A stretch of 64,000 nucleotides of DNA from positions 1 through 64,000 of the IMG/VR virus record IMGVR_UViG_3300030419_008098, one strand, 5' to 3'. Within the stretch, counting starts at the first letter, position 1, and the number at the start of each line of letters is the position of its first letter. Shown piece after piece: positions 5,672 through 43,213 of the stretch. Under the pieces are notes generated by a model. The model saw only the letters and a list, made by a program, of their open reading frames with translations. It searched no databases and was not told where the DNA came from. The stretch is from a virus. Made by a program: the position numbers and the translations under genes.

Positions 5672-5696
5672 CAAAAAAAGGAAGTGAAGCTCCTCA

Positions 5697-5837
5697 GTTT
5701 CGCTCTACTTCACATTAGGAGGGGAATAAAAGAGGTATAAAACATTATACATTAGTATTTAAGTTTCGCTCTACTTAATTAAAAATGGTCGGGACGGATT
5801 TCGCTCTGAAGAACTGGATGCGAACCAGATTTCGCTC
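5697..5837 (-). repeat. Guide-like array after scaffold A
   Basis: Read on the minus strand after scaffold A, four GCGAAAY separators (plus-strand positions 5829-5835, 5798-5804, 5763-5769, 5697-5703) divide unique segments of 24, 28 and 59 nt. Three of the four separators sit in the longer form GAGCGAAAY or GTAGAGCGAAAC seen at the end of the 36-nt repeats. The last separator (5697) belongs to a degenerate copy of the 36-nt repeat lacking its first arm. Spacing 5697 to 5763 is 66 bp, the same as the repeat-spacer unit of the CRISPR-like array. Confidence 0.7.
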
Positions 5838-5948
5838 TAATAAGAAAGAAGATGCCTATTAATATAATCTCAAGGCTTTGAGTTCCCCCTGCGAACTAGG
5901 GAAGAACATTAAAATTTTTAAAGAACTGTTAGTTAAGGGCGTCCCTGC
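5838..5948 (-). ncRNA. RNA scaffold copy A of the TnpB/Cas12-like locus
   Basis: One of four homologous blocks. On the minus strand: GGGACGCCC, CAGTTCTTTAAA, a hairpin around TTCTTCCCTAG...CAGGGGGAA (5881-5906), then a 23-nt hairpin (5854-5876) with stem arms GCCT/AGGC. The arms differ from the other copies but still pair. The block ends directly at a GAGCGAAAT separator and lacks the GAGGGGAG anti-repeat-like end of copies B and C. Confidence 0.75.
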
Positions 5949-6013
5949 GTTTCGCTCTACTTCTGGATGATGGGGTTTCACTCACCTTTACAAGCAAGGC
6001 GGGCTAGTTTAGC
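5949..6013 (-). repeat. Guide-like array after scaffold B
   Basis: Minus-strand order: GCTAAAC (6007-6013), 25-nt unique segment, GTGAAAC (5975-5981), 19-nt segment, GCGAAAC (5949-5955), which abuts scaffold A. Spacing is 32 and 26 bp. The first segment can fold (CGCCTT/AAGGTG) and contains CGCCTTGCTTGT, found inverted in a spacer of the CRISPR-like array. Confidence 0.6.
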
Positions 6014-6129
6014 TCCCCTCCGTGAAGGAGATGCGTATTGATGTAATCGCAACGCTTTTAATTCCCCCTGCGAATTAGGGAAGAATATTTATAAAATTTT
6101 AAAGAACAGTTATTTAAGGGCGTCCCTGC
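6014..6129 (-). ncRNA. RNA scaffold copy B
   Basis: Shares with copy A the 5' elements GGGACGCCCTTAA and GTTCTTTAAA, and with all copies the TTCTTCCCTA/AGGGGGAA hairpin (6061-6086) and the 23-nt hairpin (6033-6055), here with arms GCGT/ACGC. It ends in CTCCTTCACGGAGGGGAGCT, which can pair with the first 15 nt of the 36-nt repeat at 13 positions. Confidence 0.75.
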
Positions 6130-6134
6130 TTACG

Positions 6135-6368
6135 GTTTCGCTCTACTTCAAATTCAGAGGAGTGCAAAACGAAACGAGTTTTTCGCCTTGCTTGTTTCAG
6201 GTTTCGCTCTACTTCAAATTCAGAGGAGTGCAAAACAAAGAAGTGGCAGATTGGCGGCATCTTTTAGTTTCGCTCTACTTCAAATTAGGAGGGGTGCGAA
6301 ACTATTACAGCCGAATTAACTGACCGACTAACGTTTCGCTCTACTTCAAATTAGGAGGGGTGCGAAAC
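6135..6368 (-). CRISPR. CRISPR-like array: four 36-nt repeats and three 30-nt spacers
   Basis: Repeats at 6135-6170, 6201-6236, 6267-6302 and 6333-6368; spacers at 6171-6200, 6237-6266 and 6303-6332. The unit is exactly 66 bp. On the minus strand each repeat starts GTTTCGCACC (or GTTTTGCACT) and ends GAAGTAGAGCGAAAC, so its ends form an inverted repeat. The two repeats nearest scaffold C are identical to each other and the two nearest scaffold B are identical to each other, with 4 differences between the pairs. No cas1 or cas2 is nearby. A 32-nt spacer-like segment (6369-6400) and a separator at 6401-6407 link the array to scaffold C. Confidence 0.85.
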
Positions 6369-6438
6369 CGTCAGGGCTTTCATGCCGCTAAAGGGGTTGA
6401 ATTTCGCTCACCAAAACCCGTGGGAACTCTAATTTCAC
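6369..6438 (-). repeat. Guide-like segments between scaffold C and the CRISPR-like array
   Basis: Minus-strand order after scaffold C: GTGAAAT (6432-6438), 24-nt unique segment (6408-6431), GCGAAAT (6401-6407), 32-nt unique segment (6369-6400), then the first full 36-nt repeat. This joins the compact 7-nt-separator layout to the CRISPR-like layout in one continuous array. Confidence 0.7.
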
Positions 6439-6527
6439 TCCCCTCGGTGAAGGAGATGTCTTTTGATGCAATCTCAAGACTTTTAGTTCCCCCTGCGAAC
6501 TAGGGAAGAACTTTAAACTGTAAAGAA
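6439..6527 (-). ncRNA. RNA scaffold copy C at the 3' end of the effector gene
   Basis: Begins about 3 bp past the effector stop codon, where TnpB loci carry their omega/re-RNA. It has the TTCTTCCCTAG/AGGGGGAA hairpin (6486-6511) and the 23-nt hairpin (6458-6480, arms GTCTT/AAGAC with an inner GAT/ATC pair). It then has CTCCTTCACCGAGGGGAG, leading into GTGAAAT. The 14 nt at 6432-6445 can pair with the first 14 nt of the 36-nt repeat with one mismatch, so it could act as an anti-repeat (tracr-like), or the block could be a natural single guide. Confidence 0.8.
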
Positions 6528-6529
6528 CA

Positions 6530-7906
6530 TTAACCGAAAACCGCTTTTTTTATGTTTTGGGCGGCATTTTGGTCACGCTCATGGTGTGTTCCACATTCGG
6601 GACACTCCCACTCGCGGTCAGTTAAGGACAATTCACTATTCCTGTAACCACAGCAAGAACAGTCTTGAGTGGTATAAGCAGGGGGAACTGCCTCAACTAC
6701 ATTACCCCTAAGCTCAGACTTATATGTTAATTGATTTTTAATATCATATATTCCTGCTTCAAGGGATTTTTTATTAATTGCTTGTTTTTGTTTATTAAAA
6801 AGTTTTTTATCTTTTTGGGTATTACCAACCATCTCTTTTACTTTATAATCTTCAAAAGCAATGCCATCGTAATTATTTGTTATTTGATGGGTGAAATTAT
6901 GGATGGCATCTTTGTGTTGGCGTGTTTGTTGGCGCTTAAGTTTACCCAATCTCTTGAGAAGTTTACGCCAATTATTTGAGCCGCGCTCCTTCAAAGACAG
7001 TTGTTGTTGAACTCGCAGAATACGATCCTCAAGTTTTTTATCCTTGGGGAAATTATATTTATTGTTTTGGTCGTCTATTACATTATCCTTAATCCCGAAA
7101 TCCAACCCAATAGTTTTAGTTGGCTTTTCCACAACAGGAGGTATTTTATTTGGGTCAAGAGCAATAGTAATACAGAGGTAAAACTCATTACCCTCTTTTG
7201 AGAGTGAAACCGTTTTCATTTTACCCCCTTCGGGGATGGGGCGGTGCATCACAAGCCTCATCGGCTCTTTTATCCCCGCTATTTTATTAAGTCGGCTGTG
7301 GGTTGGGCGCTCTTCATTTATAGTGATTGAATACTCGCCTTCTATTGGTTCACCCTCTGCATCTACAGTATTGGAGGTACTGATAAAACCCCCATCACAA
7401 AAATGAGTGGGATGAACAGGGAGGCGATTACCGCTTTCTTCTGCAAAATATTTTACACCTTTACCTTTAGTATACCAGCTAGACTTAACTTTGGGGGCAA
7501 CATGGTTTAGACACCTAGCTGACACCTTATTTAAAATCTCGTACCCCCAACATTCGCCCTCATCGTTCATGTAGCGGTTTGCTTTGAGGGATTTGTTTAT
7601 TATCCTTGTTTCTCCCGTTTTAAGTTTCTTTACTTTCTTATATTTGAACTCGGGCAAATTATCCAAGCCCTCTTTTTTGGTGCGCCATTGGGAGATTAAT
7701 TTATTCATGGCGGTGAAGTTTGGTGCGCCCTTGGCACTCTGAAACTCGGGGTAGTTCTCTATATCCCCCGCAATCCTGACGAATTCATTCACTACAATCT
7801 GAACAGCCTTCATTGCCTCGGTAACTTGGGCATACCACTCAGTTTCCTCAATCTTTTGACTACGAGTGAGGGGGAGGAGTCTATATTTATAAGTTATAGT
7901 TTTCAT
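6530..7906 (-). CDS. TnpB/Cas12-like RuvC nuclease, effector of the array locus
   Basis: 458 aa, typical TnpB size and much smaller than most Cas12 proteins. N-terminal KYRLLP is the usual TnpB opening. RuvC-I is TIGLDFGIKD (D269), the Arg-rich bridge helix follows (about 310-340), RuvC-II is IAFEDYKVKEM (E352), a zinc finger uses C416/C419 and C435/C438, and RuvC-III is HERDQNAAQN (D445). All three catalytic acidic residues are present, so it should be an active RNA-guided DNA nuclease (family knowledge). No TnpA transposase and no IS200/IS605 end was seen. The gene sits between scaffold D with its compact array upstream and scaffolds C, B, A with the CRISPR-like array downstream, all on the same strand. 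It is best read as a domesticated TnpB or a minimal type V effector. Biochemical role is inference. Confidence 0.9.
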   Translation of the reverse strand: MKTITYKYRLLPLTRSQKIEETEWYAQVTEAMKAVQIVVNEFVRIAGDIENYPEFQSAKGAPNFTAMNKLISQWRTKKEGLDNLPEFKYKKVKKLKTGETRIINKSLKANRYMNDEGECWGYEILNKVSARCLNHVAPKVKSSWYTKGKGVKYFAEESGNRLPVHPTHFCDGGFISTSNTVDAEGEPIEGEYSITINEERPTHSRLNKIAGIKEPMRLVMHRPIPEGGKMKTVSLSKEGNEFYLCITIALDPNKIPPVVEKPTKTIGLDFGIKDNVIDDQNNKYNFPKDKKLEDRILRVQQQLSLKERGSNNWRKLLKRLGKLKRQQTRQHKDAIHNFTHQITNNYDGIAFEDYKVKEMVGNTQKDKKLFNKQKQAINKKSLEAGIYDIKNQLTYKSELRGNVVEAVPPAYTTQDCSCCGYRNSELSLTDREWECPECGTHHERDQNAAQNIKKAVFG

Positions 7907-7963: not shown

Positions 7964-8137
7964 ATTTCGCTCTTTCCTTAAGTTAAAGTTCAGCCTTGCC
8001 TAGTTTCGCTATTAAAGTGTGGCGTCATCGTACATATTTCGCTCTGTTAAAGCAACAATTGGATCATGTTTCGCAACCCAAGAGCTTAGCTCAGCTGGTG
8101 TTTCGCCTTGGAAGTAATACTCTCCACCTCGTTTCAC
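7964..8137 (-). repeat. Compact guide-like array with 7-nt separators after scaffold D
   Basis: Six separators on the minus strand: GTGAAAC (8131-8137), GCGAAAC (8100-8106), GCGAAAC (8068-8074), GCGAAAT (8036-8042), GCGAAAC (8003-8009), GCGAAAT (7964-7970). The unique segments between them are 24, 25, 25, 26 and 32 nt, giving a period of 31-33 bp, then 39. No 36-nt repeat is present; the separator equals the last 7 nt of that repeat. The segment at 8075-8099 resembles a tRNA D-arm. Confidence 0.75.
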
Positions 8138-8225
8138 TTTAGAAAAGATGCTCTTTGATGCAATCTCGGAGCTTTGGATTCCCCCTGCGAACTAGGGAAG
8201 AATTTTAAATTATTTAAAGAACTGT
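8138..8225 (-). ncRNA. RNA scaffold copy D, promoter-proximal
   Basis: Minus strand: ACAGTTCTTTAAAT at the predicted transcription start, TTCTTCCCTAG/AGGGGGAA hairpin (8178-8203), 23-nt hairpin (8150-8172) with arms GCTC/GAGC, then directly AAGTGAAAC. As in copy A, the GAGGGG anti-repeat-like end is missing. Confidence 0.8.
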
Positions 8226-8230
8226 AATAC

Positions 8231-8259
8231 ATTATCTCATAAACCGTGTTAAAAGTCAA
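8231..8259 (-). promoter_or_regulatory. Sigma70-type promoter of the scaffold-array-effector unit
   Basis: TTGACT (8254-8259), 17-bp spacer, GATAAT (8231-8236). The expected start, about 7 bp downstream (8224-8225), falls on the first conserved base of scaffold D, strong support that the scaffold is the 5' end of an RNA. Confidence 0.7.

Positions 8260-42844: not shown

Positions 42845-43213
<369 letters not shown>

What the first reader, a model, noticed from the sequence alone, without database searches (positions are those of the whole stretch)
7964..8137. Compact array: 24-26-nt unique segments separated by only 7 nt
After scaffold D, six GNGAAAY separators occur every 31-33 bp (last 39), with unique sequence between. 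The separator equals the last 7 nt of the 36-nt repeat. This suggests the minimal element needed next to a guide is GCGAAAC, and that one scaffold may serve a string of guides, or that several guide parts are used at once on one RNA. I do not know a described system with such short separators for a RuvC/TnpB effector.
Basis: partly seen in the sequence, partly recalled or inferred. Interest (0 to 1): 0.88.

Follow-up and report, generated by a model that had tools for sequence, protein, structure and literature searches.

The report
Phage guide array with 7-nt separators
A phage carries a small RNA-guided DNA-cutting enzyme of the TnpB/Cas12 kind whose guide sequences are packed almost end to end, separated only by the 7 letters that must sit next to a guide in such RNAs; if it works as it looks, it is the tightest natural guide array of this kind I know of and a glimpse of how CRISPR arrays could have grown out of transposon nucleases.

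Summary
On the minus strand, GYGAAAY occurs at 8137, 8106, 8074, 8042, 8009 and 7970, with unique 24, 25, 25, 26 and 32-nt segments between; shuffled sequence never gave more than two in a row. All four boxA-preceded scaffolds of this operon run into a 7-nt handle, a 24-25-nt segment, then a second short separator. The operon also holds a 458-aa TnpB-family effector with its catalytic residues intact and a regular 36-nt-repeat/30-nt-spacer CRISPR array. Two scaffold hairpins are supported by compensatory changes among the four copies. The loop of the first, UUCGC, can pair with GCGAA/GUGAA of every separator except one. That matches the guide-adjacent pseudoknot of TnpB and Cas12 guide RNAs. 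I infer that the separators are bare pseudoknot strands: each scaffold makes a natural single guide with its first segment and lends itself, tracrRNA-like, to the rest. Use of the later segments, by cutting or by exchange on one RNA, is not shown, and erosion remains a serious rival. No relative carries the RNA; sibling phages lack the locus. No protospacers were found, but segments D2 and A1 match tRNA genes (15/15, 14/15).

The parts
8231..8259 (-). sigma-70-like promoter TTGACT-17-GATAAT with TG before the -10, just upstream of scaffold D
   Evidence: 10 of 12 matches; consensus match only, the region has about as many promoter-like sites as its shuffles
8213..8222 (-). boxA-like GTTCTTTAAA before scaffold D
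   Evidence: the Legionella CRISPR-leader boxA is GTTCTTTAAAA (PMC7862264)
8131..8225 (-). scaffold D, ending in its own handle GTGAAAC (8137-8131); HP1 8203-8178 with loop UUCGC 8191-8187, HP2 8172-8150
8107..8130 (-). segment D1, 24 nt
8100..8106 (-). separator GCGAAAC
8075..8099 (-). segment D2, 25 nt; first 15 nt equal the antisense of a tRNA D-arm
8068..8074 (-). separator GCGAAAC
8043..8067 (-). segment D3, 25 nt
8036..8042 (-). separator GCGAAAT
8010..8035 (-). segment D4, 26 nt
8003..8009 (-). separator GCGAAAC
7971..8002 (-). segment D5, 32 nt
7964..7970 (-). separator GCGAAAT, followed by segment D6 / mRNA leader 7963-7907
6530..7906 (-). effector gene, 458 aa, TnpB family; RuvC residues D269, E352, D445 and zinc-finger cysteines present
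6432..6528 (-). boxA (6528-6519) and scaffold C with handle GTGAAAT (6438-6432)
6369..6431 (-). compact pair: C1 (24 nt), GCGAAAT (6407-6401), C2 (32 nt)
6135..6368 (-). regular CRISPR array: four 36-nt repeats (GTTTCGCACCCCTCCTAATTTGAAGTAGAGCGAAAC and a close variant), three 30-nt spacers between them
6007..6107 (-). boxA (6107-6098) and scaffold B with degenerate handle GCTAAAC (6013-6007)
5949..6006 (-). compact pair: B1 (25 nt), GTGAAAC (5981-5975), B2 (19 nt), GCGAAAC (5955-5949)
5829..5926 (-). boxA (5926-5917) and scaffold A with handle GCGAAAT (5835-5829)
5763..5828 (-). compact pair: A1 (24 nt, tRNA T-arm-like), GCGAAAT (5804-5798), A2 (28 nt), GCGAAAC (5769-5763)
5697..5762 (-). 30-nt spacer and a last, degenerate 36-nt repeat (5732-5697)
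5673..5713 (-). terminator-like stem GUGAAG / CUUCAC followed by a T run
   Evidence: read from the sequence; the loop is too long for the scan, so this is inference

Best explanation
This is a phage-borne, TnpB-derived, CRISPR-like system whose guides are stored partly in an ultra-compact format. Each of four scaffold RNAs folds into two conserved hairpins and runs into a 7-nt handle (G-YGAAA-Y) and a guide, as in a natural single-guide omega-RNA. The handle is the strand that pairs with the UUCGC loop of the scaffold's first hairpin, forming the pseudoknot next to the guide. Since that strand is the one part that must be joined to the guide, further guides are added with only the 7 nt in front. 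After cutting of the transcript, or by exchange along one uncut RNA, these handle-guide pieces borrow a scaffold as crRNAs borrow a tracrRNA. The regular 36-nt repeats carry the same handle. Shown: the layout, the hairpins, the complementarity, the intact catalytic residues. Inferred: the pseudoknot in the cell, use of the second and later guides, processing, and DNA cleavage. The likely biological use is inter-phage conflict or an attack on host DNA; guides aimed at tRNA genes are a lead only.
For: Six-in-a-row separators against at most 2 in shuffles. The same arrangement at four scaffolds, with first segments of 24, 24, 25 and 24 nt. HP1 and HP2: 100% of cells paired, 4 pairs changed on both sides, covariation reached by 1 of 500 shuffles, and no shifted register comes close. 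GCGAA or GUGAA pairs 5 bp with loop UUCGC at -7.0 or -5.1 kcal/mol; 18 of the 19 handles listed keep this pairing, and only GCTAAAC at 6013 does not. In ISDra2 TnpB the pseudoknot uses positions -6 to -2 before the guide, and it is conserved among all Cas12 guide RNAs (PMC10097598); here the paired stretch is -7 to -3. TnpB can cut its own transcript to make omega-RNA (PMC10278001). Four of the five D separators have no trace of the rest of the 36-nt repeat in front of them (p 0.38-0.58; the fifth p 0.04). boxA, a signal of long untranslated RNAs including CRISPR arrays, precedes all four scaffolds. The effector belongs to the TnpB family with an intact D-E-D site.
Against: No RNA data. No protospacer in phage or plasmid collections, in this phage, or in about 2.3 Mb of sibling phages beyond chance, so the segments are not proven to be guides. 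No small stem stands before the compact separators, so the later guides would lack the third hairpin that the scaffolds give their first guide; a 5-bp contact in trans may be too weak. The scaffold loop is invariant, so the pseudoknot itself has no compensatory support, and the heptamer motif was partly defined by its own pattern. Scaffold B's own handle breaks the pairing.
Confidence: 0.5

Rival explanations
1. Eroded array: only the first segment after each scaffold (a cis, omega-RNA-like guide) and perhaps the 36-nt-repeat array work; the later short separators are 5'-truncated repeats on the way out.
For: Separators form a series from 36 nt through about 15-20 nt (5955, 5769) to 10 and 7 nt, always keeping the 3' end. 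Repeat 5703 and handle 6013 are visibly degenerate. The scaffold arm that could bind the 36-nt repeat is present in B and C only, not in A and D.
Against: Random loss should not give five periods of 31-39 nt and first segments of 24-25 nt at four places. Four of the five D separators have no repeat remnant upstream. The D array lies directly behind the best promoter match and keeps the heptamer nearly perfect.
Confidence: 0.27
2. Cis multi-guide RNA: the transcript is not cut; the single UUCGC loop pairs with one of six handles at a time, so one RNA offers a choice of guides.
For: One scaffold, several identical pairing strands in one transcript; all segments lie downstream of the loop.
Against: Up to about 170 nt of RNA would have to be looped out. 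Trimming of guide 3' ends, usual for guide RNAs, would destroy the later guides. Nothing separates this from the trans model with the tools at hand.
Confidence: 0.1
3. Leader regulation: the array in the effector's 5' untranslated region is a decoy or sensor (handles titrate the scaffold loop and tune effector expression) and the segments are filler.
For: The D array lies between the promoter and the start codon at 7906. AmaTnpB activity is inhibited by part of its own mRNA (PMC10278001).
Against: The same separators occur downstream of the gene at scaffolds C, B and A, where no leader exists. Filler would not need a 24-25-nt period.
Confidence: 0.08
4. Coding sequence or chance repeats.
For: A 41-codon GTG-start frame crosses D1-D4.
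Against: Separators fall in different frames, the peptide has no real homologue, and shuffles give runs of at most 2.
Confidence: 0.02

Closest known systems
IS200/IS605 TnpB with omega-RNA (ISDra2 and relatives)
   Same: Effector family, D-E-D RuvC site and zinc finger; scaffold 5' of the guide on one RNA; pseudoknot beside the guide.
   Different: No TnpA and no transposon ends seen; four scaffolds; several guides per scaffold; one scaffold lies upstream of the gene; a CRISPR array is present.
CRISPR intermediates derived from TnpB (type V-U, LaTranC)
   Same: TnpB-like effector beside a CRISPR array, with separate scaffold RNAs. About 50 such TnpB-CRISPR associations have been inferred (PMC12669027). 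LaTranC is in the PDB as a hit by sequence and fold.
   Different: Not a close relative (TnpB proteins score higher). I know of no such system with 7-nt separators or with scaffolds interleaved with guides; the TranC paper itself was not in the library.
Type V-C and V-D systems with scoutRNA (Cas12c, Cas12d)
   Same: A separate RNA joins the crRNA through very short complementarity (scoutRNA = short-complementarity untranslated RNA, PMC11127173).
   Different: Effectors of about 1,200 aa (PMC7889808); to my knowledge ordinary repeats and one scoutRNA gene.
Cas12f (type V-F) dual guide RNA
   Same: Similar size, fold hits at E near 1e-13, pseudoknot plus repeat:anti-repeat.
   Different: tracrRNA in one copy and full-length repeats (from general knowledge).
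TIGR-Tas
   Same: Compact guide arrays in phages with very short repeats.
   Different: Tas proteins carry a Nop domain, and arrays have paired edge and loop repeats giving 36-nt units (PMC12045711); here there is no Nop domain and one kind of separator.

Membership tests
TnpB (RNA-guided nuclease family) | OrfB/TNB domains above curated cut-offs | tested here: met
   PF07282 79.1 bits (cut-off 26.3), PF01385 50.1 (30.5), NF040570 191 (100)
TnpB (RNA-guided nuclease family) | RuvC D-E-D and zinc-finger cysteines | tested here: met
   D269, E352, D445, C416/C419/C435/C438 invariant in the alignment with 34 TnpB proteins
IS200/IS605 or IS607 element | TnpA or serine recombinase next door, or transposon ends | tested here: not met
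   No such gene among the neighbouring frames examined; siblings have other genes at the site. End structures were not searched with a dedicated tool.
TnpB omega-RNA | Scaffold directly 5' of the guide, with a pseudoknot strand next to the guide | tested here: inconclusive
   Layout and complementarity met in all four scaffolds (one with a broken handle); pairing in the cell not tested
CRISPR array | Several near-identical repeats with unique spacers of even length | tested here: met
   Four 36-nt repeats at 66-nt steps, plus a degenerate fifth
CRISPR-Cas type V | Spacers that match foreign DNA | tested here: inconclusive
   No protospacers found; D2 and A1 match tRNA genes
CRISPR-Cas type V | crRNA maturation from the array | not testable with these tools
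   needs RNA sequencing
CRISPR-Cas adaptation | cas1 and cas2 nearby | tested here: not met
   none found among the neighbours scanned; not every gene of the genome was scanned
TIGR-Tas | Nop domain effector | tested here: not met
   no Nop domain hit
TranC / type V-U subgroup | Falls in one of the published clades | not tested
   reference sequences and paper not held; only PDB hits to LaTranC (E 1.5e-11)

The most novel reading that the evidence does not exclude
A natural multiplex guide format: the only element repeated per guide is the 7-nt pseudoknot strand, and each scaffold serves its own first guide in cis and a string of further guides in trans or by exchange, so that an omega-RNA and a CRISPR array are one and the same transcript.
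Probability: 0.4. Interest if true: 0.9.

Novelty: new variant of a known kind. Interest (0 to 1): 0.74.

Why it matters
How single-RNA TnpB guides became CRISPR arrays with separate tracrRNA and crRNA is an open question. Published structures suggest that the tracrRNA-crRNA pair arose by splitting an omega-RNA (PMC10097598). This locus carries both states side by side, full repeats and bare pseudoknot strands, with four copies of the scaffold, and so makes the minimal requirement for a separable guide directly testable. A working 7-nt separator would also be the shortest multiplex guide format I know of, for a 458-aa nuclease.

Tried and rejected
Relatives by RNA: scaffold core pattern, 0 hits in viral contigs; repeat end GAAGTAGAGCGAAAC, 23 hits, none with a repeat array around it. 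Relatives by protein: one at 33% at first, then 80 genome loci and 80 viral loci, none with this RNA or a compact array; the apparent compact run in L315 is a plain tandem duplication, and L379 is an ordinary array. An Ignavibacteria hit reaching the N-terminus (L114) is a plain TnpA-TnpB element. Mini-stem in front of each compact separator: rejected (sum of energies at shuffle level). Anti-repeat pairing of the 36-nt repeat to HP3: weak, B and C only. Protospacers: none. Rfam: no family in the locus. Host search through the tmRNA in 148 genomes of one phylum: no close match.

Full report
What is there. The window lies in a 96,744-base virus record. All features of interest are on the minus strand, read in falling coordinates. 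Behind a sigma-70-like promoter match (8259-8231) comes scaffold D, then six GYGAAAY heptamers at 8137, 8106, 8074, 8042, 8009 and 7970, then the effector gene 7906-6530. Behind the gene follow scaffold C, a four-repeat CRISPR array of 36-nt repeats and 30-nt spacers, scaffold B, scaffold A, a last degenerate repeat and a terminator-like stem.

The observation. In shuffled sequence a run of more than two never occurred, against six here. More important, the arrangement is general to the locus. After each of the four scaffolds the first segment is 24 or 25 nt long (24, 24, 25, 24 for D, C, B, A), followed by another short separator and another segment. Four of the five separators in the D array show no trace of the other 29 nt of the repeat in front of them, and the intervals are not coding.

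The scaffolds. The four scaffolds are 80% alike on average. Two hairpins fit all four copies. In HP2 three of four pairs change on both sides (C-G, U-A, G-C and so on), in HP1 one does; all 52 cells are standard pairs; the covariation score was reached in 1 of 500 shuffles, and registers shifted by 1-3 columns fall to 62% or less. With only four related rows this is good but not conclusive. Ten bases matching GTTCTTTRNA stand about 20 nt before HP1 in all four; there are seven sites in the window against 2.2 expected. GTTCTTTAAAA is the boxA antitermination signal in front of the Legionella Lens CRISPR array (PMC7862264). That fits long untranslated transcripts.

The separators as pseudoknot strands. 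The loop of HP1 holds UUCGC in every scaffold. GCGAA of the separators pairs with it over 5 bp; the GUGAA forms keep the pairing through G-U. Only GCTAAAC of scaffold B breaks it. In ISDra2 TnpB positions -6 to -2 before the guide form the pseudoknot with a loop about 100 nt upstream, and this element is common to all Cas12 guide RNAs (PMC10097598). The separators here are thus the same element plus one or two bases. This is the simplest reason why just these 7 nt recur next to every segment. It rests on complementarity and position; the loop never varies, so covariation cannot test it.

The effector. 458 aa, Pfam and NCBIfam TnpB models well above cut-off, nearest solved natural structures TnpB, then Cas12f and LaTranC (the model has mean pLDDT 72 with a confident RuvC part). 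D269, E352 and D445 are in place. The first 200 residues are poorly matched by any relative.

Distribution. The best match in viral contigs was 33% identical; none of 80 genome and 80 viral TnpB loci carries a compact array of this kind. Of 50 sibling phage records found through the DNA polymerase (best 67%) only one has a TnpB-like protein, and it is a different one. In two siblings the same slot between conserved genes holds HNH-like or other nuclease-like frames (named from sequence, not tested), so the locus sits at a site where such genes seem to come and go.

Targets. No protospacers were found in phages or plasmids, in this genome or in siblings beyond shuffle level. Of the 17 segments tested against 54 sibling-phage tRNA genes, which make up 0.18% of the sibling DNA, D2 matches 15 of 15 (antisense of the D-arm) and A1 14 of 15 (T-arm), while shuffles of the segments reach two mismatches at best. 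The D2 match stops exactly at nt 15. This is a post hoc finding. D-arms are alike in many bacteria, so it does not name a host; A1 differs at an otherwise invariant tRNA base and also resembles HP1. It hints at guides of about 15-16 nt aimed at tRNA genes of the host or of rival phages; this phage has none that ARAGORN finds.

How it may work. One long transcript, kept going by boxA, is folded at each scaffold; the effector binds scaffold, pseudoknot and first segment as a natural single guide. Later segments, each with its pseudoknot strand, are either cut free, perhaps by the effector, which can do this in other TnpB systems (PMC10278001), and loaded with a scaffold in trans, or compete for the loop on one RNA. 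The regular repeats hide the handle in a GUUUCGC/GCGAAAC hairpin and would need processing; the compact separators do not. Against this stand the lack of any RNA evidence, the missing third hairpin for later guides, and signs of decay elsewhere in the locus. I give 0.5 to the guide-array reading in its general form, 0.27 to erosion.

Verdict. A real and well-supported anatomical novelty in a known kind of system; mechanism open, and cheaply testable.

Noticed in passing
window 42847-43213 (-): A complete phage-encoded tmRNA gene (Rfam RF00023, 136.9 bits, E 2e-55); ARAGORN reads the tag as AATSVLLTQIG, without the usual ALAA-like end, which would not mark proteins for the usual proteases if the reading is right.
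   Followed up: partly
L106 1779-2160 (sibling phage G037): A TnpB-like ORF (481-1809) followed by five tandem units of 69-70 nt, nearly identical except for about 6 variable bases between GATGAG and ATAAGC, then a terminator: too short for a DNA guide and unexplained.
   Followed up: partly
L205 12846-14011, L203 3281-3901: In sibling phages the slot between the clamp-loader side and the sigma-factor side holds HNH-like or other nuclease-like frames instead of this locus.
   Followed up: partly
window 6134-6108 and 5948-5927 (-): The stretch GCAGGGACGCCCTTAA before boxA of scaffolds B and A is the same in both copies, directly or 5 nt after a GCGAAAC handle: a duplicated unit whose first part looks like a shared guide or a linker.
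   Followed up: no
window 6200-6171 and 6006-5982: CRISPR spacer R3 and segment B1 share 12 nt in opposite orientation (CGCCTTGCTTGT), as if aimed at one target on both strands; could be chance.
   Followed up: no
window, 30 gene starts: Only 4 of 30 phage genes have a Shine-Dalgarno-like motif, which points to a host that initiates translation mostly without it.
   Followed up: no
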